Virus record (IMG/VR): IMGVR_UViG_3300021963_000782
Location: 1-21,000 of that record
Strand: one strand, 5' to 3'
Length of the DNA: 21,000 nt
From: a virus
This document shows, in pieces, positions 1-20,104 of the stretch. The translations under genes were made by a program, and so were the position numbers. A model generated the notes under the pieces. The model saw nothing but the letters and a program-made list of their open reading frames with translations. It was not told where the DNA came from and ran no database searches. Every line of letters begins with the position of its first letter. Position 1 is the stretch's first letter.

Positions 1-137
1 TGGCGCATAGCATCATCAAACACAACGTTCTGACTGATAGTTGTTGTAACATAAGCAGTAGCAATAGCGTTATAAGTTGTTTGTCCTTGTGCTCCAAGGC
101 AGAACAGCAATACAAAAATTAATAGTAAACGTTTCAT
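1..137 (-). CDS. Exported protein of unknown function, truncated by window edge
   Basis: Only the first 45 codons are present; the gene runs off the left edge. It starts MKRLLLIFVLLFCLGAQG, a clear Sec signal peptide (two basic residues, about 12 hydrophobic residues, likely cleavage near AQG-Q), so the product is exported. The mature start is rich in Thr, Ala and Val. The ATG overlaps the stop of the preceding 57-aa gene as TAATG, so translation is probably coupled. It is the last visible member of the curli-type cluster. A CsgE-like periplasmic factor would fit the position, but the visible residues do not convincingly match CsgE, so I leave it unassigned. Confidence 0.75.
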   Translation of the reverse strand, partial: MKRLLLIFVLLFCLGAQGQTTYNAIATAYVTTTISQNVVFDDAMR

Positions 138-310
138 TATTGGGGCCTTTCAAACCATCTATAGCGTTGCAGAACCTGCATCACAGCGTCTGGAGTGGAT
201 TTGTTCCAAGTAGCCGCCCACTCTACAAAACGATACCAATCGTAAATGTAATTGTCCTGACCTTGTTGCCATGCTTGATACATGTGACGAAGTTCGCTTT
301 CGACCATCAT
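137..310 (-). CDS. 57-aa aromatic-rich protein in the curli-type cluster
   Basis: This 58-codon frame starts with two consecutive ATGs. The first forms an ATGA overlap with the stop of the FecR-domain gene, and its own stop forms TAATG with the next gene, so it fits exactly between its neighbours. The product has no signal peptide or membrane segment. It contains five Trp and several Tyr (for example YIYDWYRFVEW and RYRWF) and could be a small helical cytoplasmic protein. I recognise no family. Exact coupling on both sides is the main evidence that it is real. Confidence 0.7.
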   Translation of the reverse strand: MMVESELRHMYQAWQQGQDNYIYDWYRFVEWAATWNKSTPDAVMQVLQRYRWFERPQ

Positions 311-1413
311 CTGCGTAGTACTCCAAGGTTTTGTTTGATATACACTGTGTTACCACCGCCTCCCCCAGCACCAATTAGTTCACTAGCACTGGCATCGTTA
401 TGTACAATTGTGATGGCAGTGTTGCTACTGTAACCTTGTGTTTTTACTTCAGCATAGTGATCTTCGTTGCTTCTAAAAGCAGTACCACGGCCGCGGCTTT
501 GAATTTCTTGTGCTTCTGGATTGGTCCATGTAACGCAAATGTTAGTGCTGGAATTACAACCAGTCTTACCTGAGGCTTCAGCCATGGCCAATACTCTTGC
601 TCGTTCAATGTCGTCTGCACTTTCTCGAACACGTTGAGCCAAACGACGAGCCGCTTCAGCTTCAATCTCAGCTTCTAATTCTTCGCGTTTGGTTCGACCT
701 GTGTTGTCACGAATAGCACGTTCAACTTCATGCGGACGAACAATGATCAAATTGTTGTTAATTTTGCTTTCAATGGTATGAATTACAGTAGGAGCGGTAG
801 GACGCATATCTGCACTTGATATAAAGGTAGCTTCAAATGCTTTGTCTAACACCACAGTACCTGCGGCAGTGGAAACAGAAATCTCTCCTACTCGGCAACG
901 ATTTTCTTCTAACTCGTATTTCTTTTGTTCGCTTTCTTCTTTGCAACTGGGCAACAGCACCACAAGGCTTTGACCTGTTTCATCTACTGTCATTGAAAAG
1001 TCAGTGCCACGAACAGCAATGTTGGCTGTTGGTGTTTTAACTGCAACTTGTTGTGGATTGTTCTTGGCAATTTGTCCCGAAGCATAACGAACAGTGCCCA
1101 TTGTTACTTTCATTGCTAACTTACCTGCGTCTGATTGCTTGGGATCAAATACAAACTCGTCAATTACTAATTTTGAATTTTCTGTTACTTTTACTTTTGT
1201 ATCGTCTCGAAAAGTAATGTTACTGGCACAGGCTTGTGTTAGGTAGGTATCCATGCTTTCGATACTAGCACCTTTTACGCCTGATGTTTTTGTCTTGCCA
1301 CGTTGCACTTCACATTGTGATCCTTTGTTGTCGGATACAACTCCAATACTACCACTGGCAAAAATGGTAGTATTGGTTAACGTTAAAAGTGTGGCTAAAA
1401 GCAATCGCCACAT
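307..1413 (-). CDS. Exported FecR-domain protein with C-terminal curlin-like strand
   Basis: The 368-aa product has a signal peptide (residues 1-20, ending FAS-G). A FecR-type domain spans about residues 23-160, with its most typical segment around 125-140 (KTPTANIAVRGTDFS). FecR domains are periplasmic beta-rich ligand or scaffold modules. A charged helical stretch (about 228-280, rich in Glu, Arg and Ala) suggests a coiled coil. Four Cys (C34, C62, C157, C173) and a C286/C293 pair could form disulfides. The last 20 residues carry a Gly5 linker and GNTVYIKQNLG, resembling one curlin strand of the neighbouring fibre protein (PNKVYIEQIGNSN). It starts 5 bases after the curlin stop, in the same operon. 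I infer a role in anchoring or nucleating the fibre, as CsgB does, but this is unproven. Confidence 0.85.
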   Translation of the reverse strand: MWRLLLATLLTLTNTTIFASGSIGVVSDNKGSQCEVQRGKTKTSGVKGASIESMDTYLTQACASNITFRDDTKVKVTENSKLVIDEFVFDPKQSDAGKLAMKVTMGTVRYASGQIAKNNPQQVAVKTPTANIAVRGTDFSMTVDETGQSLVVLLPSCKEESEQKKYELEENRCRVGEISVSTAAGTVVLDKAFEATFISSADMRPTAPTVIHTIESKINNNLIIVRPHEVERAIRDNTGRTKREELEAEIEAEAARRLAQRVRESADDIERARVLAMAEASGKTGCNSSTNICVTWTNPEAQEIQSRGRGTAFRSNEDHYAEVKTQGYSSNTAITIVHNDASASELIGAGGGGGNTVYIKQNLGVLRR

Positions 1414-1418
1414 TGGTT

Positions 1419-2234
1419 TTATCTCGCGATTGCAGTGCCTGGGCTAACAATTGCACTACTGCTTGTTCGTACAGTGATTGTATTGTTGCTACCTGTTGCA
1501 CGGATATCAACAGTGGTATCATTGGTACCTTGTTGTTGAGTTGTGATACTGTTGAAGCTACCAGCAATTACTTGCTTCAAGTAGTGACCATTGGCACCGG
1601 ACGCATCTGTTTGTTGAATGTTTAATACGTTGCTGTTACCTGTGATTTCAATATCACTTGTACCGTTTGAACTTTTTAGTTCTTTTGTAACTTGGTTTAA
1701 ATTACCAGCAATGGTAGTAGAACTTGTGATGTCGCTGCCAACTAACTGTTGAATAATCAAGTTAGTGTCGCCAGTGACGGATTCTGTTACTGTGTTACGC
1801 AAGTTACTTGCATTGTTTACATCACCAATTGTCAAACTAGTTTGGTTGCTGTGACCAGTAACTGTGCTAGTATAAGCGTTGTTGTTACCTTGCATGTCGT
1901 ATTGAGCACTGTTGCTGTTGCCAGTTTGTGTCAATGCAACCGTGTTACTGCTACCAGTAATAGTGGCATAGTTTGAAGAACCAGGAGCAGCCGGCGTGAA
2001 TGTGGTAATACCACTTGCGCTAACGCTAGTTGGTGTGCTTAATGCAACGCCACCAACATTGTTAGTGCCACCCACTTGTTGAATAGTAACTGTATTGCTG
2101 TTACCAATTTGTTCAATATAGACCTTGTTTGGTCCAGTAGACGCTTGCGCACATACAACACCAGTGGATGTTAGCAATGCTACGGCAAGAAAACTTTTTG
2201 TTAGCTTGCCAATGCTTGTCATACTATTATTCAT
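1419..2234 (-). CDS. Curlin-repeat fibre protein (CsgA/CsgB-like)
   Basis: The 271-aa product has a signal peptide (about 1-30, ending VVCAQA). The rest is Asn, Thr, Ser, Gly and Gln rich, with about eleven degenerate curlin-type repeats of the pattern G-x-x-N-x-hydrophobic-x-hydrophobic-x-Q-x-G: IGNSNTVTIQQVG (43-55), SSNTVALTQTG (95-105), then copies near 116, 128, 157, 178, 199, 225, 238 and 249. Curlin repeats form stacked strand-loop-strand units in extracellular amyloid fibres exported through CsgG. E. coli CsgA has five repeats and about 151 residues, so this is considerably longer and more irregular. An insert at 60-88 (Ser/Thr/Pro/Ala rich) interrupts the repeats. The leader contains three hairpins. 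The first ATG has TAGG seven bases upstream; an alternative ATG at 2222 lacks a ribosome site. Confidence 0.85.
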   Translation of the reverse strand: MNNSMTSIGKLTKSFLAVALLTSTGVVCAQASTGPNKVYIEQIGNSNTVTIQQVGGTNNVGGVALSTPTSVSASGITTFTPAAPGSSNYATITGSSNTVALTQTGNSNSAQYDMQGNNNAYTSTVTGHSNQTSLTIGDVNNASNLRNTVTESVTGDTNLIIQQLVGSDITSSTTIAGNLNQVTKELKSSNGTSDIEITGNSNVLNIQQTDASGANGHYLKQVIAGSFNSITTQQQGTNDTTVDIRATGSNNTITVRTSSSAIVSPGTAIAR

Positions 2235-2378
2235 CTTAAAACCTAAACAGATTATTTTTCTCTGTTTAGCTCCTTGGGATACTTCCCGTTAATTTACCCT
2301 CTTTGATCTTACCAGAGAGTGTAGAGTCTCTGCACCTACACACTATACAAGCAAGATCTATGCACAGTTTTCTTAAAC
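2235..2378 (-). promoter_or_regulatory. Structured leader between csgG and the curlin gene
   Basis: The 144-base gap holds no gene. In transcript order it has an inverted repeat at 2313-2332 (CAGAGA/TCTCTG), one at 2276-2287 (GGGA/TCCC, 4-base loop) and one at 2243-2269 (CTAAACAGA/TCTGTTTAG, perfect 9-bp stem, 9-base loop). The last ends one base before the G of the presumed Shine-Dalgarno TAGG, so it may limit ribosome access. A weak -10-like TATAGT lies at about 2343-2348 without a convincing -35. No T-run follows any hairpin, so none is a clear terminator. Confidence 0.55.
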
Positions 2379-3251
2379 TTATTGTGCTGTTTCTACTTTC
2401 TTAGCTTCTTCAGTTACTGGAACTGCGACAGCTGGTTTATCTTCTTTAAAACTCCAGTGTCCTTTACGAGCACCTTCGTGAATCGTGTTTACCACAGCAG
2501 CTTGCACAGCCAAATTAACCGCCTTGTTGATGCTTTCGTTAATGCTGGCACCAGTCTCAGCTTCTACGCTTTGTGTGCCACTGTCTACAAACTTTAACAC
2601 ACCAAACTTGTCCATGTAGCTTAAAACTGTTTTTGTAACTGTTACGCTGGTCAACACTTCGCCTGTGCTTACGCTGACTGTTCGTAGGTTAACTGTAACC
2701 GTATCGCTTTGATACTGGGTGCTTGCACCAATACCCAATAGTCTTACACCCGAGCCGCCTGTTAGCGTGTTGCTGTCATAACCAATGATACCACCTTCTA
2801 CAATAATACCAGCAAACATCATTGGGTTTAATGGCTTGGCTTCTTTGCCCTGATACTGTTCGCGAGCTTGACGAATCATTTGACGCTCTTTGATTAAGTT
2901 TTCCAAGCCCACACGTTCCAACACTGTGAACCAACGAGCTTGGCCAACATCTTGTAAGGCCTTGATTAAGTAGCTTTCGGCACCCTGTGTAACTGCTGAA
3001 CTTAAACTGGCAATGTTAGGAATACTCTTGCGCTGACCAGTTTTGTCTTGAAAGCCATATACAGCAACTGGGATAGGACCAGTAGCAGGTGGAAGCAAGT
3101 TGCTGGATTGATCTTTTAAGAATATGTTTTGTTCAACTACAGGAGCATCAAACTGCTTGCCTGTTGCTTTTTCACGCATGGCACTGCCTGTAGCACATCC
3201 GCTTAGGGCCAATACTGCCAATACTGCAAGTGATAAAATTGTCTTTTTCAT
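2379..3251 (-). CDS. csgG: Curli secretion pore lipoprotein CsgG
   Basis: CsgG forms the nonameric outer-membrane channel that exports curli subunits. The 290-aa product (E. coli 277) has a lipoprotein signal with lipobox LSGC (C19). Strong family blocks follow: VYGFQDKTGQ, WFTVLERVGLENLIKER, IIVEGGIIGYDSN, GIGASTQYQSDTVTVNLR, and VSTGEVLTSVTVTKTVLSY. In a hand alignment, the E. coli constriction residues Tyr51, Asn55 and Phe56 correspond to aliphatic or small residues here (segment KSIPNIASLSSAV). A Pro, Val, Glu and Lys-rich tail extends the C-terminus. The ATG lies 9 bases after the csgF stop, with AAGGA just upstream, so the two are co-translated in one operon. Confidence 0.95.
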   Translation of the reverse strand: MKKTILSLAVLAVLALSGCATGSAMREKATGKQFDAPVVEQNIFLKDQSSNLLPPATGPIPVAVYGFQDKTGQRKSIPNIASLSSAVTQGAESYLIKALQDVGQARWFTVLERVGLENLIKERQMIRQAREQYQGKEAKPLNPMMFAGIIVEGGIIGYDSNTLTGGSGVRLLGIGASTQYQSDTVTVNLRTVSVSTGEVLTSVTVTKTVLSYMDKFGVLKFVDSGTQSVEAETGASINESINKAVNLAVQAAVVNTIHEGARKGHWSFKEDKPAVAVPVTEEAKKVETAQ

Positions 3252-3260
3252 GTCATGTCC

Positions 3261-3740
3261 TTAGATATCAAATGCGGCATACGGCATTGTTAATTCTGTA
3301 TAGTTGTTAGGGTTTGCAACTTCTACAATTCTAACAACGATGTTTGTACCTTGGATTCTCCAAGTGATGTTTTGGCCGCCAATGTCAATGTCACCACATG
3401 GGCCACCAGATGTTGTTGGTGTGCATGAGGGTGCATTAGGGCTAGATCCAAACAAGCTATCACTGATACGCTTGGCTAATTCGCTATAAATGCGAGTCTC
3501 CATGCTGGCTTTAAAACGTGCCTGCGGAGTATTTGCGGCTTCGCGTTCAGCAGCCGCTTTAAGTGCATCAGCGGCTTGTTTGTTTTTGTCTTTTTGCTGA
3601 TCTTCTAATTGTTTTAGAGTCAGCACATGCGACGAATAGCCCAAACCACTAAAGGCTGGGCTATTAAAATTGTGTTGTAGTTCAGCGGCACTTGCGCTTA
3701 GTGCAATGCTGGCTAATAATGCTAAAGTTGTCTTTTTCAT
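3261..3740 (-). CDS. csgF: Curli assembly factor CsgF
   Basis: CsgF binds CsgG at the cell surface; its N-terminal peptide inserts into the pore and its body helps couple secretion to fibre nucleation. The 159-aa product (E. coli 138) has a signal peptide (1-18, ending ASA). The mature N-terminus HNFNSPAFSGLGY resembles the conserved FxFxNPxFGG peptide. A Lys, Ala and Glu-rich helix follows (about 45-75), then the C-terminal domain with ETRIYSELAKRISDSLFG and DIDIGGQNITWRI. Two Cys in a Gly/Pro loop (CTPTTSGGPC) could form a disulfide absent from E. coli CsgF. No Shine-Dalgarno is seen next to the ATG; instead a strong hairpin ends three bases before it. Confidence 0.9.
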   Translation of the reverse strand: MKKTTLALLASIALSASAAELQHNFNSPAFSGLGYSSHVLTLKQLEDQQKDKNKQAADALKAAAEREAANTPQARFKASMETRIYSELAKRISDSLFGSSPNAPSCTPTTSGGPCGDIDIGGQNITWRIQGTNIVVRIVEVANPNNYTELTMPYAAFDI

Positions 3741-3813: not shown

Positions 3814-5319
3814 TTATTTTAGTTGGCGTACAGAAGAAGTAGTAGTCATTGCAGGCTTATCCTTGGGCACAATCTTCTTGGCCTTAGGTACCGCTACAGG
3901 AGCTTCTGTGTCGCCCGCTACTTCGACATCCTTAGCACCATTCTTAAGAATCTTAAATGTAAAGTTGCCTTTACCTTGCGTGCTCATGTATGCTTTACTA
4001 GCATCAAGTAAAACGCCTGTAACTGTTTCACTTGGATAAACAGCATTAAAGCTGTCAATGCTGATTGTGTCCTTGGTTTCGGAACAATTTGTGTACATTT
4101 GTACCAATGCAGAGTGGTTTAAAATGTCAGAAGCTGCCTTGCCAAAGTTTGTGTTTTCATTAACATAATCAGCAATCTTATAAGCAATAGCACTGATCAT
4201 GTGTTCCATTGGAATAATAACACGCATGTCACGTGCCTTACGACCGTTGTACAATGTTTCTAATGCTGTGTGACCTTCCCAATCAATTTGATCATCAGGA
4301 CCGTACTTCTTTAAGGTCATTGCAAATGTAGCATCTTCGGCTGTAATCATCTTGTAGTCTACTGCCAATTTTAACGGAGCTCCAAAGTGACCCTTGGCAT
4401 CAATATCTTTCAAGATTTCAACAACTACTTTGTGCTTTTCAAGCAAAGCCGCACCCTTAGGAGCAACTTTTAATTCGTTAATACTCTTTAACAAGTTAAC
4501 AACACTTGCACTAGCACCGCTTGCACCTTTACTTGATAATTTGATTTGCTTGCCTTGCGGGTTAACAATTAGACTATCATACAAGCCACCTGTTACACTG
4601 TTGTTAAAGCTGATAGTGCAGTCGTTGTATCCGCCCTTGCCAAAGAAAATGTCAGCCGCTTCGCTGGCATTACCCTTAATTGGCTTGTCCATTAACAATG
4701 TTAATGGTTGTAGCATTTCGCAGAAGTAATCGCGGAACGCTGTCATGTTCATGTTGCCCTTAGGGAACGTAATAGGAAACTTGTTAGCAGTTAAGAAAGC
4801 ATTTAGTGCAACAACTTCGTCACTACCTTGTCCAAACTTAGCAATGATTTGTCTAGAGATAGAATCAACATCATTATTTTGGAACTGTGTTAATACTTCA
4901 CTTGGCTTATAACCAGTGTTTTCTTTTTGTCCTGCCTTGCTTTGATACTTAAAGCCACCAGGAATGTCATTGTGTTGCCAGTCGTTTTGAATACGGTTAG
5001 CAGAGATAGTTTTGTAGTAACGACCCAAGAAATAATCTTTTTTATTAGCATCAGTGAATTTAGCAACAGCAAATGCCAATGTACCTGAGTTTGACTTGTT
5101 GGTCCAATGAATGTTTTTACCTTTGGCTTCGGCATCAATTGCAGCCTGCATTTCTTCAGCTGAAGCAAATTGGCCACGCTCAGGAAAGAAGTCTAAACTT
5201 TGAAATGTGATAACATCACCAGCTGGATTTTTAAATTGCTCGCCAGGAACACGAGCAGCCAATCCACGGCCCTCAATTAATACTTCAATTCTAGTTTCAA
5301 ATATGTGACGTAATAACAT
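3814..5319 (-). CDS. 501-aa protein of unknown function, possible restriction-like nuclease fold
   Basis: I do not recognise a named family. The start at 5319 lies one base after the nucleotidyltransferase stop; a longer frame from 5361 would overlap that gene by 41 bases. There is no signal peptide or membrane segment, so it is probably cytoplasmic or packaged. A striking block at about residues 243-276 contains GGLYDSLIVNPQGKQIKLSS followed by KGASGASAS. The D248 and SxK264 spacing on adjacent strands is reminiscent of the PD-(D/E)xK nuclease core, but that is only a pattern guess. The C-terminal 40 residues are Pro/Lys/Thr/Ser rich and look disordered. Pairing with a nucleotidyltransferase suggests that the two may act together. 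Confidence 0.8.
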   Translation of the reverse strand: MLLRHIFETRIEVLIEGRGLAARVPGEQFKNPAGDVITFQSLDFFPERGQFASAEEMQAAIDAEAKGKNIHWTNKSNSGTLAFAVAKFTDANKKDYFLGRYYKTISANRIQNDWQHNDIPGGFKYQSKAGQKENTGYKPSEVLTQFQNNDVDSISRQIIAKFGQGSDEVVALNAFLTANKFPITFPKGNMNMTAFRDYFCEMLQPLTLLMDKPIKGNASEAADIFFGKGGYNDCTISFNNSVTGGLYDSLIVNPQGKQIKLSSKGASGASASVVNLLKSINELKVAPKGAALLEKHKVVVEILKDIDAKGHFGAPLKLAVDYKMITAEDATFAMTLKKYGPDDQIDWEGHTALETLYNGRKARDMRVIIPMEHMISAIAYKIADYVNENTNFGKAASDILNHSALVQMYTNCSETKDTISIDSFNAVYPSETVTGVLLDASKAYMSTQGKGNFTFKILKNGAKDVEVAGDTEAPVAVPKAKKIVPKDKPAMTTTSSVRQLK

Positions 5320-5320
5320 T

Positions 5321-6136
5321 TTAAATTTCAACCCCTTCGCGGCCCAATGTTTCTCTTGCATCAGCTATTAATGCTTCACGCTGGGGATTATTTTCCAGTG
5401 CTTTAAGTACAGCTTCAACACTTGTTAAGCTGGTACGATCAAATCCCGGACCAAACAACAATTCAGCAATATGATCTGGGTTCTCGCCATTGTCTACTAA
5501 CTTCTTAGTAGCCCGGTCAATTAGACCAGTAGTTGGATTCCATGTAAAACCTTTTACTTTAGCAATGCTACTTAGTAGAATTTGTTTATGGGCTCCGCGA
5601 TACTTACTGTGTGGGTCAGCTGCCATTGCAAACTTTGCAAAGTCCAAATTAGGAACAAACATAAAGTCTGTTTGCACATAACCACGTTCAGGACTACCGC
5701 CAATTGGTGTTTTAAAGTGTACGCTGATACCAGACTTTCTAATAAAAGCCTTTGAATCTTCGCCATGCTGACTGCACCATTGACTTAATTTGGCAACCAA
5801 TTCTTCTTTGGTAATGCCAGCTGGGATGCCAATGTCCAAGTCACCACTGGTGGGTGTTTTACCTGTAGTACCTAGTGCATGTTCAAAATGCGGGATACCA
5901 GTAATTTTTTCAAGAAAGCGGATAGTTGGTTCTACATCAGCTTGGTTAATACGCTGTGTTAGTTCTTCGCCTTCTGCGCTCTTGAAAACATTACCGCCTT
6001 CGACGATGACAGTATTGTCACCGTGATAGTACTCCACGACTGTATTGGTTTCCGTGTTAACACGGGCCCAACGTCCGTTTACTTGACGAAGGGATTCATA
6101 TACAGTAACTCGCGGAGTAATATCACTTAAGAACAT
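5321..6136 (-). CDS. Nucleotidyltransferase-fold protein
   Basis: The 271-aa product carries a polymerase-beta-type nucleotidyltransferase signature: GTTGKTPTSGDLDIGI at about 89-104, giving the paired acidic residues D99 and D101, with a third candidate Asp in VQTDFMF (D157). Such enzymes transfer nucleotide groups to protein, RNA or small molecules; the substrate here is unknown. The central region SVHFKTPIGG through KYRGAHKQILLSS would form the rest of the catalytic palm. The ATG lies two bases after the stop of the lysine-rich gene (TAATAATG), and its stop is one base from the next ATG, so three genes form one translational unit. A toxin, an RNA-modifying enzyme or a virion enzyme are all possible. 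Confidence 0.8.
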   Translation of the reverse strand: MFLSDITPRVTVYESLRQVNGRWARVNTETNTVVEYYHGDNTVIVEGGNVFKSAEGEELTQRINQADVEPTIRFLEKITGIPHFEHALGTTGKTPTSGDLDIGIPAGITKEELVAKLSQWCSQHGEDSKAFIRKSGISVHFKTPIGGSPERGYVQTDFMFVPNLDFAKFAMAADPHSKYRGAHKQILLSSIAKVKGFTWNPTTGLIDRATKKLVDNGENPDHIAELLFGPGFDRTSLTSVEAVLKALENNPQREALIADARETLGREGVEI

Positions 6137-7747: not shown

Positions 7748-7948
7748 TCATTTGCCGTTGATAGACTTCATCTTTTCACGTTTTTCGTGAGTGTCTCTGC
7801 AATCAACGCAACAGAATGTAAACTCCGTTGGTTCCTCGCATTCAATGCAAAAGCCTGTCCGAATTGGTACAAACTCTTTTGCTGTGGCTCGGCGAAGCTC
7901 TTCGGCTGCTTCCATTGCTTCTTGAGCGTCATCGATAATATCTGCCAT
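7748..7948 (-). CDS. TraR/DksA-like C4 zinc-finger protein
   Basis: The 66-aa product begins MADIIDDAQEAMEAAEEL, like TraR-family N-terminal helices. A Cys cluster follows: C34-x2-C37, then C46, C47 and C50, fitting a C4 zinc finger, and a basic C-terminal helix. TraR-type proteins are half-length DksA homologues that enter the RNA polymerase secondary channel and alter promoter choice without ppGpp. Phages and plasmids often carry them. The Asp-rich tip normally formed by the N-terminal helix fits DxxDDA here. The ATG is preceded by AAGGGA. It probably helps shift host transcription during infection. Confidence 0.75.
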   Translation of the reverse strand: MADIIDDAQEAMEAAEELRRATAKEFVPIRTGFCIECEEPTEFTFCCVDCRDTHEKREKMKSINGK

Positions 7949-7957
7949 GTTATTCCC

Positions 7958-8203
7958 TTATTGTTTTACTTCGACAATTTCAAAATCATCTGCGTCGAAG
8001 AATGTTACTTGATATTCTTCATCTCCATACTTATAGTAATCGGTGATGAATCGTTGGTTATTGGTTGATTGATATGATTCTAGAAATTGCAAGATAAGCC
8101 ACATGTCAGCCTTTTCTTGTCCTTCTAATGTTCGTTCATTGGGGCGAACAATACCTGCACGTACCAAAAAGTCATATGCTTCTTCCTTGGTCTTAAAGTC
8201 CAT
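7958..8203 (-). CDS. 81-aa acidic hypothetical protein
   Basis: I do not recognise a family. The product is acidic and mainly helical for the first 50 residues (KTKEEAYDFLVRAGI, EKADMWLILQFLESY), then strand-like (YQVTFFDADDFEIVEV). It has no signal peptide or membrane segment. It overlaps the end of the upstream gene by 11 bases and lacks a strong ribosome site, so it is probably translated by coupling. It belongs to a run of small early-type phage genes between 7748 and 8775. Confidence 0.8.
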   Translation of the reverse strand: MDFKTKEEAYDFLVRAGIVRPNERTLEGQEKADMWLILQFLESYQSTNNQRFITDYYKYGDEEYQVTFFDADDFEIVEVKQ

Positions 8204-8459
8204 TGGTCAGCACCCACATAAACACATCAGGACCATCAAGGATGACCATGTCGCTGGCATACTTTAGTCGCTTGGAGCGATACTTGCCTCCAACCTTTTC
8301 CACTTCGACCATTTTAGGAGTAAAGCGAAGCACCTGTGCAATATACAGTCCATTGTCTGCTACAGCGACATATTGACCTTCTTTAAACTCTCGTCCCATC
8401 AAGTCATAGTGCAACTCAGTTGGCGTTACACTTTTGATAGGCTTTTTAACAGTTGTCAT
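8193..8459 (-). CDS. 88-aa small beta-barrel-like phage protein
   Basis: The sequence has a central beta-rich segment, DLMGREFKEGQYVAVADNG followed by LYIAQVLRFTPKMVEVEKV. It resembles the small SH3/KOW-type proteins common in phage genomes that begin with a 'GREI-x-VGD-x-V' block. The remainder includes a basic stretch (KYRSKRLKYAS). No enzyme motif is visible. It overlaps the preceding gene by 14 bases and the next by 11, supporting a compact operon. The fold assignment is tentative and the function unknown. Confidence 0.75.
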   Translation of the reverse strand: MTTVKKPIKSVTPTELHYDLMGREFKEGQYVAVADNGLYIAQVLRFTPKMVEVEKVGGKYRSKRLKYASDMVILDGPDVFMWVLTNGL

Positions 8460-8775
8460 CTTCTGCTTCCTCTTTTAGCTGGCTCTTGTAGAATTCCAAC
8501 TGATCAATCAGGCTTTGAACGCCTTCGCTGTTCATACTGACTTCACCGTAGTACATGCTGAGTGCTACACGATTGTTTTCGGTTAGTCCCAAGCGATAAT
8601 ATACACGACCAAAATCTTCTTTTGGCTGTGTTACTTCTGGCACAGGGGGAACAGATTTGAGCTCGGGAAACTGAAGGACCTTGCCCATGTCAGTGCCAAT
8701 TTTTTCCATATCAGACGCTATGTTTCCTGTAGAGTATTCACGCCGCCCAAATGTTTTTCCAAACCAATCAAACAT
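8446..8775 (-). CDS. 109-aa hypothetical protein following the pilin-like gene
   Basis: It starts MFDWFGKTFGRREYSTGNI, with an aromatic amphipathic N-terminus. A Pro/Val linker follows (about 38-50), then a beta-strand-containing domain (GRVYYRLGLTENNRVALSM) and a C-terminal helix (EGVQSLIDQLEFYKSQLKE). The ATG overlaps the pilin stop as TAATG, with AGGAGG six bases upstream, one of the strongest ribosome sites in the window. That implies high expression. No family is recognised and there is no signal peptide. Confidence 0.8.
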   Translation of the reverse strand: MFDWFGKTFGRREYSTGNIASDMEKIGTDMGKVLQFPELKSVPPVPEVTQPKEDFGRVYYRLGLTENNRVALSMYYGEVSMNSEGVQSLIDQLEFYKSQLKEEAEDDNC

Positions 8776-9032
8776 TAAAAACCTCCTGGCTTGTTAGCCT
8801 CACACTTGACACCCTTGCCAAACTCGTCCATGACTTGTCGTGTGCCACCATGCTGGCTAACAACAAACTTATATCCGTCAATGCATCGCATTTCAGTCAT
8901 ACCGTTTACGCCGTAGCTGATGGTATTGCCTTGCCCGGCCCCGCCCATTACACCCAGACCAATTGAAGCCACAACCATGATCATTACAAATACAACCATC
9001 ATTTCAATTAAGGTAAATCCACGTTGTTTCAT
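8775..9032 (-). CDS. Type IV pilin-like protein (short prepilin)
   Basis: The 85-aa product has a textbook prepilin leader and N-terminal helix: MKQRG then FTLIEMMVVFVMIMVV. Cleavage by a host prepilin peptidase would follow Gly5, leaving Phe at +1 and the diagnostic Glu at +5. The globular part is very small (about 55 residues) and has two Cys (C50, C78), consistent with a minor pilin or pseudopilin with a D-loop-like disulfide. It overlaps the upstream lipoprotein gene by four bases. A pilin without any visible assembly machinery probably exploits or disturbs the host's type IV pilus or type II secretion system. Confidence 0.8.
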   Translation of the reverse strand: MKQRGFTLIEMMVVFVMIMVVASIGLGVMGGAGQGNTISYGVNGMTEMRCIDGYKFVVSQHGGTRQVMDEFGKGVKCEANKPGGF

Positions 9033-9277
9033 TTGTCGTTTATCACAGTAGTTGTTACAGTTTTACGAGTCTTACCGTTTGGTACTTCGTACGTTACAGT
9101 AGTATCGCTCTTGGGGCACCGCATCACACGCACATCTTCGATTTTGATGTAAACACAATCCGCCAGTTCGGGAATGTTTGACATTGAAGTCTTAGAGTAG
9201 TCACGCTGGTCTAAGGGCCGTTTATCACAAGCGGTGAGAGCAACCACCGCTAGTGCCAAGATGATTGCTCTCGTCAT
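9029..9277 (-). CDS. Small lipoprotein
   Basis: The 82-aa product has a lipoprotein signal peptide ending LTAC (C17), then an acidic and Thr-rich mature domain. The domain has two further Cys (ADCVYIKIE and VMRCPKS) that could form a disulfide, and beta-strand character (TTVTYEV, RKTVTTTV). It should be anchored in the inner or outer membrane. It lies between the Band-7 lipoprotein (one-base gap after its stop) and the pilin-like gene (four-base overlap), so the three probably act together at the cell envelope. The family is not recognised. Confidence 0.8.
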   Translation of the reverse strand: MTRAIILALAVVALTACDKRPLDQRDYSKTSMSNIPELADCVYIKIEDVRVMRCPKSDTTVTYEVPNGKTRKTVTTTVINDK

Positions 9278-9278
9278 A

Positions 9279-10073
9279 TTACTTCATCATCAGTGCGTTA
9301 AAGTTAGCAGGCACAACAATGGTCTGTACCTTGCCGTTCTTGATGCCTTCGGAAATATTCATCATGGCCTGTGCTTGCATGTATGCAATACTTTGAGCAC
9401 CTTGATTACTTAGAGCTTGCATACGCTCTGCTTCCATTTTGGCAGTCTTAACTTCAACTTCTTTCTGCTTGAGTTCGTTCTTGGCACGAACCAATTCGTT
9501 GGCACTTGCTACGACTGAATCAGCAGGAACAACATTACGAATCAACACTTGACCAACAACCAAACTACCATCTAGTTTTTCGTCAGCCAATGACTTTTGA
9601 ATCTGCTCTTTGATGGCCGCTTCCATTGCTTGACGATTGTCAGCCATATCCAGTGCTTCGTACTTACGTGCTTCTTTGTAGATGGCATTACGAGCAGCCT
9701 GAGTGATGTAGTTGTACATCAGATAAATGTCGCCGTTGTGACGAGCATGGAATGCTTGACTCTTTGTGCTGTACAGTTCAGCAACCTGTGCTTGGTTGAT
9801 GTTGTAGATGACCACAGCATCAAAGTCTTTCATTGTTGAGTTGTCTTTGGCAACAGGAGTCATGTCATCCAGCTTGACGTTGACGTCCTTGATTGGAAAT
9901 GTCAGCACATCACCCACCAAGACTTGATTGAACGAGCCGGGCAATAGCTCGCCACTTTGCACTTGTTTGTCAAAGCCTACGCGAACACCAACTTCACCTG
10001 TCTCAATTCGAGTACAAGCAGATGTTAGAGCCACTGCCGCAGCCACGATAGAAAGTTTAATAACACGATTCAT
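9279..10073 (-). CDS. Band-7/prohibitin (SPFH)-domain lipoprotein
   Basis: The 264-aa product starts with a hydrophobic signal ending LTSAC (C20), a probable lipobox. The SPFH pattern follows: TGEVGVRVGFDKQV, then VLTFPIKDVNVKLDDMTP and MKDFDAVVIYNINQ. There is a long helical region (about 175-235, NELVRAKNELKQKEVEVKTA) typical of prohibitin coiled coils that drive ring assembly. Such proteins form membrane microdomains and regulate membrane proteases. Phage copies could protect or remodel the host membrane, or block superinfection. The ATG has GGAG about nine bases upstream. Two tiny membrane-protein genes precede it. Confidence 0.88.
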   Translation of the reverse strand: MNRVIKLSIVAAAVALTSACTRIETGEVGVRVGFDKQVQSGELLPGSFNQVLVGDVLTFPIKDVNVKLDDMTPVAKDNSTMKDFDAVVIYNINQAQVAELYSTKSQAFHARHNGDIYLMYNYITQAARNAIYKEARKYEALDMADNRQAMEAAIKEQIQKSLADEKLDGSLVVGQVLIRNVVPADSVVASANELVRAKNELKQKEVEVKTAKMEAERMQALSNQGAQSIAYMQAQAMMNISEGIKNGKVQTIVVPANFNALMMK

Positions 10074-11294: not shown

Positions 11295-11963
11295 CTACTC
11301 TTTTAAAAGTAAGCTAAAAGCCCACATATCTGAAAAATTTGCATCTGAGTACTCGTACGGGATCCAAAAGTACCCGCCTTCGCCCCAATCGTCCCCAAAA
11401 CTATTTCGTAGCAAGAACTGTTGCTTTGAATCGTCGTAGCCAACTATGCACATGGCATGGCTTCCAATGGGCTCTTCGGTTGCAGTGGGCATTTTTAATA
11501 TTGTGGAGTGGTTGTTGATTCGGTCAAAGTCAGAGTACACTGCAACTCCAACTACTACAGGATGCTGGCGATCAAGCATATCAACAATTTCTTCATGTGA
11601 AGTTATTTCATATACCTGGTCTATGGTTCTCTTGCGAGCATCACGATAACATTTGTAGCCAGGCTCTACATCAAACTTGTTGGGATCGTAAGGCCATAAA
11701 TCCTCTCGGCATAGTCCGTAGGTTTTGACTGCTTCAATTGCAGTTGAAATATAAGCACCAATATCTTCATTTATATCACCAGAAAGTTTTCGAGCATTGT
11801 AGTACAAAAACAATCTGCTGAGATCAACAAACTGGTCTGGGTAGTGCATCTTAGTCAATAGTTCGTACGCACCAATTACTGCCTGTGCAGTGCAACTACC
11901 CAGTTGCCTTTGCTCCTCAACAGGACTGGCCCATTCTCGGAGATCAACTCGCCTTTTGGGCAT
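11295..11963 (-). CDS. Papain-like (C1 family) cysteine peptidase
   Basis: The 222-aa product preserves the full papain catalytic set: oxyanion Gln18 and nucleophile Cys24 in EEQRQLGSCTAQA, His169 in IGSHAMCIVGYDD, and Asn187 in LLRNSFGDDWGEGGYFWIPY, the classic C1 signature. No propeptide or signal peptide is present, so it begins directly at the mature domain. Its ATG overlaps the preceding gene's stop (TAATG), placing it at the end of the structural cluster. It may process virion or fibre proteins, or act on the host. Intact residues argue for an active enzyme. Confidence 0.92.
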   Translation of the reverse strand: MPKRRVDLREWASPVEEQRQLGSCTAQAVIGAYELLTKMHYPDQFVDLSRLFLYYNARKLSGDINEDIGAYISTAIEAVKTYGLCREDLWPYDPNKFDVEPGYKCYRDARKRTIDQVYEITSHEEIVDMLDRQHPVVVGVAVYSDFDRINNHSTILKMPTATEEPIGSHAMCIVGYDDSKQQFLLRNSFGDDWGEGGYFWIPYEYSDANFSDMWAFSLLLKE

Positions 11964-16943: not shown

Positions 16944-17633
16944 CTACGCTCGCAATCCTTTTTGTCCCGACAATGCCAATTGTGTTCTGTTACGTACACC
17001 ATATGCTCGTAAAATAGAACTGATGTGTACTTTTACAGTACTTTCACTGATATTTAAAATCTGTGCTATTTTTTTATTGCTTAGTCCTCGATTTGAAACC
17101 AGGGCCATAATTTCTCGTTGACGGTTAGTGAGTCGAATACCATATTCCACTGTGGCTCTTGTGGATGCTTTGACCTTGGGTACAATATATTCTTCGGGCC
17201 AATGCGTTGCCCCCGACAAAAGTACATTTAGTGCGTCAAAGAAATCGGCATTACCAAAACTACTGTAGTTTGGAACAATGCCGCTTATATTACTTTTCTT
17301 TAAATCTTGAATGAACTTTTGTTCACATTTATCGTTTACCAAAATGCCCACACTGACTTTTTTTGATCCTGCTACTGTGGAAATTGTTGTTAGTGCATCA
17401 ACGATTTCATTTATAGTAGTACCTGGGAACAACAGTGCATCTTTGTCAAAAATTACCAATATGATATCATTTTCAGAATCTGTATCAATGCATAACTCTT
17501 GACAAAGTAAACTCATAAGTCCTGGCCATGAATCAACAATGTTGATAGAGCCGTCAGTGACTTCCCCGATTGCAATTAGTGCATCTTCGCTAAATTGTTT
17601 GTTTGTGCTGTCAAAATAAATTGTCCGTTTCAT
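16944..17633 (-). CDS. LuxR-family transcription regulator with degenerate receiver-like domain
   Basis: The 229-aa product ends in a clear LuxR-type helix-turn-helix (about 167-218): LTNRQREIMALVSNRGLSN, then KKIAQILNISESTVKVHISS, then ILRAYGVRNRTQ. The N-terminal 140 residues look like a response-regulator receiver (ILVIFDKDALLFPG, Asp63 candidate), but the usual Lys and switch region are replaced (GIVPNYSS), so phosphorylation is doubtful. CsgD, the curli master regulator, has the same overall layout and size (216 aa). The gene has its own promoter, an AGTACT array in the leader and a terminator. Regulation of the curli-type cluster is an appealing inference but not shown. Confidence 0.88.
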   Translation of the reverse strand: MKRTIYFDSTNKQFSEDALIAIGEVTDGSINIVDSWPGLMSLLCQELCIDTDSENDIILVIFDKDALLFPGTTINEIVDALTTISTVAGSKKVSVGILVNDKCEQKFIQDLKKSNISGIVPNYSSFGNADFFDALNVLLSGATHWPEEYIVPKVKASTRATVEYGIRLTNRQREIMALVSNRGLSNKKIAQILNISESTVKVHISSILRAYGVRNRTQLALSGQKGLRA

Positions 17634-18969: not shown

Positions 18970-19800
18970 TTAAATATTAAAAGTTAATCGCTTTAATAAA
19001 CGATCAGATTCACCGGGTGCTAAACTAACTTCAGTGCGTTTATGTACCGAATTCCAATTATCATAAACAATTAAATCGCCATCATCCCAAGTATGAGAAT
19101 ATACAGTATTACTTTTGCTTTCGCATAATCGATAAACAGATTCAATAAATGCACCAGAATCTTTAAGAGGACGATGGCCATTTTCTACATGATGAATCCA
19201 AGCCACTTGATTTTTGCCAGGTGTTGTGTAGCAGTTAACTCTAGGACTAAATTTTCCAGACTTGGGATTGGCTTTTAAAAATGGATATCTAATTAAATTA
19301 GTGCCAGGTTTGTACATATCCTGTTGGACAACATAATAATCTTTAAATTGATCACGTTCTTCTTGTGTAAATTGTGCCCAAGCCGCTTCCAAGTTTAACC
19401 ATGCAGTTTCTCCACTGCGATTCACTGCGCCGCGCACCATGTACAAAGCTCGTGCTGGATAGCTATTCTCACCTACGTGTGCCATATCAGCGTGATACTT
19501 CATATCACGAGCGCCCCACATATTATTGGTTTGAAAATAGCTTACCGGAGTAGTGTCGCGATGTTTGATAGTGGTGTCAGTGGGAGTACGTTTATAATCT
19601 TCTCGAGTCCACACACGACCAAATTGTTCACCAATGGAATGATATTCAGCGTCAGTTAGATTCGGCCCTAGACCTTTTAATACAAGTAGTCCACGTTCAA
19701 CCAAAATACGTTGTAGTGTGGCTTTATCCTCAGCAAGAAGCTGATCCAGCGTAACACTGTATTCTGTGCCCCACTCGGGGAAAATGTTTTTACCGTCCAT
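18970..19800 (-). CDS. TauD/TfdA-type Fe(II)/2-oxoglutarate-dependent dioxygenase
   Basis: From the ATG at 19800 the product is 276 aa, the usual family length; a longer frame to 19923 runs deep into the lipoprotein gene and is rejected. The facial triad is present: H103-x-D105 in KYHADMAH, and distal H253 in DGDLIVYDNWNSVHKR, with R267 or R271 as candidate 2-oxoglutarate ligand. The enzymes hydroxylate small molecules such as taurine or carnitine precursors; the substrate is unknown. It overlaps the lipoprotein gene by 11 bases. Local GC drops to about 30-40% on many lines, lower than its neighbours, hinting at separate acquisition. As a phage auxiliary gene it may alter host metabolism. Confidence 0.88.
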   Translation of the reverse strand: MDGKNIFPEWGTEYSVTLDQLLAEDKATLQRILVERGLLVLKGLGPNLTDAEYHSIGEQFGRVWTREDYKRTPTDTTIKHRDTTPVSYFQTNNMWGARDMKYHADMAHVGENSYPARALYMVRGAVNRSGETAWLNLEAAWAQFTQEERDQFKDYYVVQQDMYKPGTNLIRYPFLKANPKSGKFSPRVNCYTTPGKNQVAWIHHVENGHRPLKDSGAFIESVYRLCESKSNTVYSHTWDDGDLIVYDNWNSVHKRTEVSLAPGESDRLLKRLTFNI

Positions 19801-20104
19801 AACCTGCACGGAATGCTTCATTATCACGACGTCGCTGTTCTTCGTAGTAGCGTTGACGAGCACCACGTTCGCATGCACTGCGTTCATTGTGCGTGGGATA
19901 TCGAGTACAGGTGTCATTGACAATGATCACTTGTTCATGCGTGACAACTGGGGCTTCTCGAACTACTACTGTTCTGGGATGTGCCATTGCATTACCAATA
20001 ACCATACCAGCAGTTCCTGCTACAATAGCAGTTCCAGTTCGTGTGGCACATCCGCTCAATGCAACCAGTGCCAATACTGCAATTAAAAGTTTAATCCTCA
20101 TCAT
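19790..20104 (-). CDS. Glycine-zipper lipoprotein, 104 aa
   Basis: The ATG at 20104 (or the adjacent one at 20101) follows GAGGA. A lipoprotein signal ends ALSGC (C19). A short Gly/Ala-rich segment, TAIVAGTAGMVIGNAMA, resembles a glycine-zipper membrane motif. The C-terminal half is highly charged and Arg-rich (RGARQRYYEEQRRRDNEAF), with two further Cys. Related small envelope lipoproteins are common in proteobacteria. It should sit in the outer membrane; a role in exclusion or envelope remodelling is possible. Confidence 0.8.
   Translation of the reverse strand: MMRIKLLIAVLALVALSGCATRTGTAIVAGTAGMVIGNAMAHPRTVVVREAPVVTHEQVIIVNDTCTRYPTHNERSACERGARQRYYEEQRRRDNEAFRAGYGR

What the first reader, a model, noticed from the sequence alone, without database searches (positions are those of the whole stretch)
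1..3740. Curli-type secretion and fibre cluster on a phage-like contig
csgF, csgG, a curlin-repeat protein, a FecR-domain protein and two small genes lie in one direction, surrounded by phage genes. CsgG and CsgF homology is strong. The usual CsgE is not identifiable and the order differs from bacterial csg operons. From memory, curli-related clusters of unclear function occur in some SAR11-infecting T4-like phages; this GC content suggests a different host. A virus-built export pore and amyloid could serve cell-to-cell attachment, superinfection exclusion or slow lysis.
Basis: partly seen in the sequence, partly recalled or inferred. Interest (0 to 1): 0.85.

Follow-up and report, generated by a model that had tools for sequence, protein, structure and literature searches.

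The report
Phage curli module with lectin-headed fibre
This phage fragment carries a known but unexplained kind of viral gene set for exporting curli (amyloid) fibres, and its relatives show that the fibre carries interchangeable sugar-binding heads, which suggests that infected cells are made sticky and gives the function a direct test.

Summary
Window 1-3740 (minus strand) encodes csgF, csgG, a curlin-repeat protein, a FecR-domain protein, a 57-aa ORF and the first 45 codons of a second curlin protein cut off by the contig end. The module is not new in kind: the same gene order is in Pelagibacter phage HTVC008M, Methylophilales phage Melnitz and published pelagiphages (PMC7029224, PMC9004378, PMC9599517). 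In 80 viral contigs fetched here it is nearly invariant: csgF-csgG-curlin1-FecR-curlin2-CHASE2/cyclase. Six records of 202-372 kb that carry it also have a T4-type capsid gene. Not found in the papers read: (1) curlin2 is a fibre subunit with a variable head (F5/8C-CBM32, PA14 or GLEYA sugar-binding domains, other domains, or none), swapped or lost while the rest stays alike; (2) the 'FecR' protein lacks the anti-sigma and membrane parts of a FecR regulator, has a signal sequence, and ends in a curlin-like strand in 40 of 40 divergent homologues; (3) all parts are under strong purifying selection. Best reading: the infected cell builds an outer-membrane pore and a surface fibre displaying lectin-like heads, most likely for adhesion, not a bare lysis pore. 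Nothing was tested experimentally; the host is unknown.

The parts
3261..3740 (-). csgF homologue, 159 aa, signal sequence; keeps an FxxPxFxG-type N-terminal stretch
   Evidence: Pfam CsgF 7.5e-8; PHROG 35372 7.8e-26; 36% to HTVC008M CsgF; dN/dS 0.06-0.12
2379..3251 (-). csgG homologue, 290 aa, lipobox LSGC; outer-membrane secretion pore
   Evidence: Pfam CsgG 2.4e-53; 1.8e-51 to solved E. coli CsgG; 47% to Melnitz and HTVC008M; dN/dS 0.05-0.07
1419..2234 (-). curlin-repeat protein 1 (fibre subunit), 271 aa, signal sequence
   Evidence: Pfam Curlin_rpt 4.6e-5; present in 67 of 68 viral loci with room; dN/dS 0.06-0.10
307..1413 (-). secreted FecR-fold protein, 368 aa, N-terminal signal sequence, no anti-sigma domain, C-terminal curlin-like strand (GGGGGNTVYIKQN)
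   Evidence: Pfam FecR 1.4e-9; AlphaFold model pLDDT 78 matching PupR signalling domain at Z 14.4; tail motif in 40/40 homologues; hydropathy
137..310 (-). small ORF, 57 aa, between FecR gene and curlin2; function unknown
   Evidence: homologues at the same place in L004, L007, L010 (67-98%) and L016, L018, L022, L023 (35-42%); no Pfam hit
1..137 (-). 5' end (45 codons) of curlin-repeat protein 2, the lectin-headed fibre protein, cut off by the end of the contig
   Evidence: translation MKRLLLIFVLLFCLGAQGQTTYNAIATAYVTTTISQNVVFDDAMR matches the 637-aa gene of L004:10994-12907

Best explanation
A phage-encoded type VIII (curli) secretion and fibre module. Shown here by sequence and models: CsgG and CsgF homologues, two curlin-repeat proteins, a secreted FecR-fold protein with a curlin-like tail, and (in relatives) a CHASE2-domain nucleotide cyclase, in fixed order and under purifying selection. 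Inferred mechanism: during infection CsgG forms the outer-membrane pore and CsgF docks on its outer face. Curlin1, curlin2 and perhaps the tail of the FecR protein pass through and assemble into an amyloid-like fibre at the cell surface, without CsgE. Curlin2 carries the business end, a variable sugar-binding head on a curlin beta-solenoid. The FecR-fold protein most likely stays at the pore as an anchor or nucleator whose tail joins the fibre, and may report assembly to the CHASE2 cyclase. Most likely use: to make the infected cell stick, to neighbours carrying the right glycan or to particles, so that progeny are released next to new hosts. Masking of surface glycans against competing phages is the next most likely use.
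For: Module order csgF-csgG-cur1-FecR-cur2-AC in viral contigs: csgF 79/79, cur1 67/68, FecR 62/62, cur2 51/59, cyclase 48/50 where the contig is long enough. CHASE2 found once in each of 15 large records; CHASE2 + cyclase domains in HTVC008M and Melnitz. Curlin2 heads: of 41 proteins scanned, 10 F5/8C, 9 PA14, 4 GLEYA. The F5/8C head of L004 is modelled like CBM32 galactose-binding modules, Z 13-15. Head exchange: L007/L010 csgG 98% but head absent in one; L039/L046 csgG 91%, cyclase 94%, heads unrelated; L013/L033 csgF 50% but shared head domain 90%. dN/dS 0.02-0.12 for csgF, csgG, cur1, FecR and cyclase in close pairs. FecR tail motif 40/40 against 5% in other windows of the same proteins and 8% in shuffled tails. 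No CsgE in 16 records.
Against: No expression, secretion or fibre data. PMC9004378 reports no clumping of OM43 cells infected with Melnitz under their culture conditions. Eight of 59 loci lack a detectable curlin2, and several curlin2 proteins are headless, so the head is not essential everywhere. Pfam's curlin model does not itself hit the FecR tail, so that link rests on a short motif, and homologues share it partly by descent. The cur2 model is confident only in the solenoid and parts of the heads (mean pLDDT 61.8). F5/8C and PA14 folds do not always bind sugars. Curlin2 lies almost wholly outside the window.
Confidence: 0.6

Rival explanations
1. Superinfection exclusion: the fibre and its sugar-binding heads coat or cap the glycan receptors of the infected cell, or mesh cells so that competing phages cannot adsorb.
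For: Head swapping among close relatives is what an arms race over receptors would give; proposed in outline in PMC9599517.
Against: No adsorption data; large lytic phages have cheaper exclusion proteins; the same domains fit adhesion equally well.
Confidence: 0.22
2. Lysis timing: CsgG/CsgF form a gated hole or pinholin-like pore, and the fibre genes are passengers (PMC9004378).
For: CsgG pores alone permeabilise the outer membrane (established knowledge of CsgG); no CsgE gate is found.
Against: Curlin1, FecR and cyclase genes are kept in nearly all loci and are under strong purifying selection; an outer-membrane pore does not breach the inner membrane as a holin must; the window has its own GH19 endolysin. 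The statement that Melnitz lacks fibre genes conflicts with two curlin-repeat proteins annotated in its own GenBank record.
Confidence: 0.06
3. Uptake: the open pore lets in siderophores, cofactors or large nutrients for phage replication.
For: No CsgE gate; solute-binding protein genes (TctC-like, DctP) in the nearby relative G002.
Against: Does not explain the curlin fibre genes, the heads or CsgF; CsgG has no energy-coupling partner here.
Confidence: 0.05
4. The FecR protein and CHASE2 cyclase are a sensor pair and the main purpose is signalling: pore or fibre status sets cAMP/cGMP in the infected cell.
For: FecR fold matches the cell-surface signalling domain of PupR (Z 14.4); CHASE2 is an extracytoplasmic sensor domain joined to a cyclase; the two genes are linked in nearly all loci and in the bacterial relative L090.
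Against: Catalytic residues of the cyclase and any FecR-CHASE2 contact were not tested; does not account for the lectin heads. It can be true together with the best explanation.
Confidence: 0.15
5. Bacterial or chimeric contig, or recent pick-up from one bacterium.
For: Six short MAG contigs labelled as bacteria fall inside the virus clade; the bacterial contig L090 joins at its base.
Against: At least 80 viral contigs share the module (537 relatives confirmed before the cut-off); Gp23, Portal_T4 and terminase on records with the module; T4-type DNA polymerase on the nearest relative's contig; virus clade separated from the other bacterial rows at 100/99.
Confidence: 0.02

Closest known systems
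Curli (T8SS) module of Pelagibacter myophage HTVC008M and Methylophilales phage Melnitz (KC465899, MZ577097; PMC7029224, PMC9004378)
   Same: Gene order csgF-csgG-curlin-FecR-(curlin2)-cyclase; CsgG 47% identical, CsgF 31-36%, FecR 46%; no CsgE; HTVC008M curlin2 also carries a head (PA14).
   Different: Separate CsgG clade; G+C about 42%; flanking genes differ; close relatives of the window mostly have larger, F5/8C-type heads and a small ORF between FecR and curlin2.
T8SS of HTVC023P-type pelagi-podophages (PMC9599517)
   Same: CsgF, CsgG, CsgA/B, FecR, second CsgA/B and adenylate cyclase in conserved order; no CsgE or CsgD.
   Different: That paper describes one or two histidine kinases just upstream; the two genes upstream here have no Pfam hit. 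Different virus group.
E. coli curli operons csgBAC/csgDEFG
   Same: CsgG pore, CsgF-type plug protein, curlin repeats.
   Different: No CsgE found, no linked CsgD shown; extra FecR-fold protein and CHASE2 cyclase; lectin-headed curlin; residues at the pore constriction differ (E. coli FKPYPASNF against RKSIPNIASL).
csgF-csgG-curlin-FecR-cyclase set in Hyphomonas sp. TMED17 (L090, NHBW01000006.1)
   Same: Same order of five genes on a 705 kb contig; CsgG joins the base of the virus clade.
   Different: No second curlin gene, no clear curlin-like tail on FecR, longer curlin (504 aa).
FecR/PupR anti-sigma regulators
   Same: FecR fold (Pfam 1.4e-9; Z 14.4 to the PupR signalling domain).
   Different: No cytoplasmic anti-sigma domain and no internal membrane helix; an N-terminal signal sequence and a curlin-like tail instead.

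Membership tests
Phage-encoded curli (T8SS) module as in pelagiphages | CsgG homologue | tested here: met
   Pfam 2.4e-53; 47% to Melnitz and HTVC008M
Phage-encoded curli (T8SS) module as in pelagiphages | CsgF homologue immediately upstream | tested here: met
   79/79 viral loci
Phage-encoded curli (T8SS) module as in pelagiphages | curlin-repeat gene then FecR-domain gene, same strand and order | tested here: met
Phage-encoded curli (T8SS) module as in pelagiphages | second curlin gene and cyclase after FecR | tested here: inconclusive
   window holds only the first 45 codons of curlin2; both genes present in close relatives L007 and L011 and CHASE2 in 15/15 large records
Phage-encoded curli (T8SS) module as in pelagiphages | histidine kinase upstream (podophage version only) | tested here: not met
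   ORFs 3814-5361 and 5321-6136 have no Pfam or PHROG hit
Phage-encoded curli (T8SS) module as in pelagiphages | lies in a phage genome | tested here: met
   IMG/VR record; T4-type polymerase on the contig of near relative L007; Gp23, portal and terminase on larger records with the module
Bacterial curli system (E. coli type) | CsgE periplasmic gate | tested here: not met
   0 of 16 records, E. coli control found
Bacterial curli system (E. coli type) | CsgD-type regulator linked | tested here: inconclusive
   a LuxR/GerE regulator lies at 16944-17633 but is found only in the two closest of 15 relatives
Bacterial curli system (E. coli type) | secreted amyloid fibre | not testable with these tools
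   needs expression, Congo red and microscopy
FecR iron-signalling anti-sigma regulator | FecR/PupR periplasmic fold | tested here: met
FecR iron-signalling anti-sigma regulator | N-terminal cytoplasmic anti-sigma domain and membrane helix | tested here: not met
   signal-like N terminus at residues 2-17; no membrane-like stretch after residue 40
Holin or pinholin lysis system | inner-membrane pore timing lysis | not testable with these tools
   CsgG family is an outer-membrane lipoprotein pore (established); lipobox present

The most novel reading that the evidence does not exclude
Many T4-type phages, including genomes above 200 kb, build a viral amyloid fibre on the infected cell that displays exchangeable lectin heads. 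A FecR-fold protein with a curlin tail anchors the fibre in the CsgG pore and reports to a phage CHASE2 cyclase. This would be a virus-made, retargetable cell-adhesion organelle.
Probability: 0.35. Interest if true: 0.8.

Novelty: new member of a known kind. Interest (0 to 1): 0.55.

Why it matters
Why phages carry curli genes has been open since 2020, with ideas ranging from sibling capture to lysis pores and nutrient uptake. The exchangeable sugar-binding heads on the second curlin protein point to adhesion or receptor masking and can be tested directly. The curlin-like tail on the FecR protein recasts it from 'iron regulator' to probable fibre or anchor part. The module also reaches viruses outside the SAR11/OM43 phages described, including records of 202-372 kb.

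Tried and rejected
T4 late promoter TATAAATA: 16 one-mismatch sites against 26.6 expected by chance, so no signal; one TTTAAATA lies 34-41 bases upstream of csgF but means little. LuxR regulator at 16944-17633 as a CsgD counterpart: only in close relatives, so not part of the module. Pfam curlin model on the FecR tails: no listed hit in 37 proteins, so the tail claim rests on the motif count alone. CsgF against solved structures: no real hit from a three-sequence profile. T4 structural families in the 60-163 kb relatives: almost none found; I read these records as fragments of larger genomes with csg far from the structural genes (in G013 csg lies about 100 kb from the capsid gene), not as non-phage. 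Bacterial origin of the contig: rejected. Host: not resolved; TctC/DctP solute-binding genes in G002 hint at a proteobacterium but are no proof. tRNA: none in the window. Habitat of the IMG/VR contigs was not looked up. I first took the sequence before window position 137 for a second small gene; comparison with L004 showed that it is the start of curlin2.
Full report
Check of the observation. All reading frames of interest lie on the minus strand. Pfam identifies CsgF (3261-3740), CsgG (2379-3251), a curlin-repeat protein (1419-2234) and a FecR-domain protein (307-1413); E. coli CsgG structures match at 1.8e-51. A 57-aa ORF follows (137-310). Window 137-1 reads as the first 45 codons of another gene, which contig L004 (98.5% identical) carries in full as a 637-aa curlin-repeat protein.

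Known kind. Among annotated phages, the window's CsgG, CsgF and FecR proteins hit only Pelagibacter phage HTVC008M and Methylophilales phage Melnitz, plus a 1.5 kb Salmonella phage record for CsgG. Their gene order is the same. Papers already describe such modules in pelagimyophages (PMC7029224), Melnitz (PMC9004378) and pelagi-podophages (PMC9599517). Proposed uses there: sibling capture, superinfection defence, uptake and lysis control; I saw no experimental test of them in the passages read, beyond the absence of clumping noted for Melnitz.

Extent. A scan of viral contigs found more than 500 relatives of CsgG; the best 80 were kept. Where the contig is long enough, csgF is present in 79/79, curlin1 in 67/68, FecR in 62/62, curlin2 in 51/59 and the cyclase in 48/50, in one order. 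The cyclases of HTVC008M and Melnitz carry an extracytoplasmic CHASE2 domain, and CHASE2 occurs once in each of 15 large records. CsgE is absent from all 16 records searched. Records of 202-372 kb with the module also carry the T4-type capsid protein Gp23, and one has Portal_T4 at 3.9e-101. The contig of the window's near relative L007 has a T4-type DNA polymerase. One search for curli in jumbo phages found no earlier report in the library held, which leaves out most subscription papers.

Ancestry. In a CsgG tree, viral sequences and six short MAG contigs form one clade (100/99) against 70 bacterial rows, mostly Alphaproteobacteria. With Hyphomonas sp. TMED17 added, this bacterium joins near the base of the virus clade; its 705 kb contig has csgF-csgG-curlin-FecR-cyclase. 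So the FecR and cyclase genes do occur in a bacterial csg cluster, which qualifies the statement in PMC9599517 that they are not within bacterial T8SS operons.

New reading of curlin2. Across 41 curlin2 proteins the C-terminal curlin part is conserved, but what precedes it varies. Pfam finds F5/8 type C in 10, PA14 in 9 and GLEYA in 4; others are headless or have unassigned heads. The set is not fully dereplicated. In the model of the L004 protein the curlin part is a beta-solenoid at pLDDT about 80-90, and residues 260-420 match CBM32 and related galactose-binding modules at Z 13-15. Heads change while the module stays: L007 and L010 share csgG at 98% but only one has a head; L039 and L046 share csgG at 91% and cyclase at 94% with unrelated heads; L037 and L067 differ in the middle of the head; L013 and L033 have divergent csgF (50%) but share one head domain at 90%. 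The whole csg module also moves: L039 and L046 have flanks about 90% identical to the window's but CsgF only 51-53%. Neither PA14, lectin nor adhesin occurs in the text of PMC9599517.

New reading of the FecR protein. It has the FecR/PupR periplasmic fold (Z 14.4 to 6ovk; model pLDDT 78), but begins with a signal-like sequence and has no anti-sigma domain or later membrane-like stretch. It ends in a curlin-like strand: [VILFMA]x[VILF]xQ lies in the last 22 residues of 40 of 40 homologues below 80% identity, against 5% of other windows in the same proteins and 8% of shuffled tails. Pfam's curlin model does not reach significance there. A weaker match is a 'cell surface anchoring domain' (5ix9, Z 6.3), too low to build on. 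I infer an anchor or nucleator at the pore; a sensing role with the CHASE2 cyclase is compatible.

Selection. dN/dS in close pairs is 0.02-0.12 for csgF, csgG, curlin1, FecR and cyclase, as for other phage genes. Curlin2 is somewhat looser (0.05-0.18) where it can be aligned. The fibre genes are therefore maintained, which counts against a pore-only role.

Judgement. Steps shown by sequence: gene content, order, conservation, head variability, viral context. Steps inferred: export through CsgG, fibre assembly, sugar binding, adhesion. The window is a new member of a known kind. The lectin-headed curlin2 and curlin-tailed FecR are features of the kind that I did not find in the papers read.

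Noticed in passing
window 16944-17633 (-): LuxR/GerE-type regulator with a degenerate N-terminal part (GerE 2.4e-16), 97% and 83% identical in the two closest relatives' contigs, with a second diverged copy beside it in G002.
   Followed up: partly
L165:6838-7749, 7947-8867 and 9018-9962 (G002, relative of the window): Phage contig carries two TctC-like and one DctP-type periplasmic solute-binding protein genes, unusual cargo for a phage.
   Followed up: partly
window 11295-11963 (-): Papain-family cysteine protease (Peptidase_C1 1.4e-18) among phage genes.
   Followed up: no
window 8775-9032 (-): Short protein with a type IV pilin-like N-terminal methylation motif (2.7e-8), near a band-7/SPFH lipoprotein gene at 9279-10073.
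   Followed up: no
window 18970-19923 (-): TauD/TfdA-family dioxygenase (7.2e-21), with what looks like a homologue in relative contig G002 (L165:11094-12047).
   Followed up: no
L084, L085, L086, L088, L092, L126: Short contigs binned as Rhodobacteraceae, Flavobacteria, Pirellulales or Pelagibacter whose CsgG falls in the virus clade: probably misbinned phage DNA in MAGs.
   Followed up: partly
L003 (MZ577097.1): Melnitz is described in PMC9004378 as lacking csgA/csgB, yet its record annotates two curlin-repeat proteins (gp101, gp103).
   Followed up: partly
OR851715.1 310-954: A 1.5 kb unannotated record named Salmonella phage encodes a CsgG 45% identical to the window's; possibly host or contaminant DNA.
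   Followed up: no
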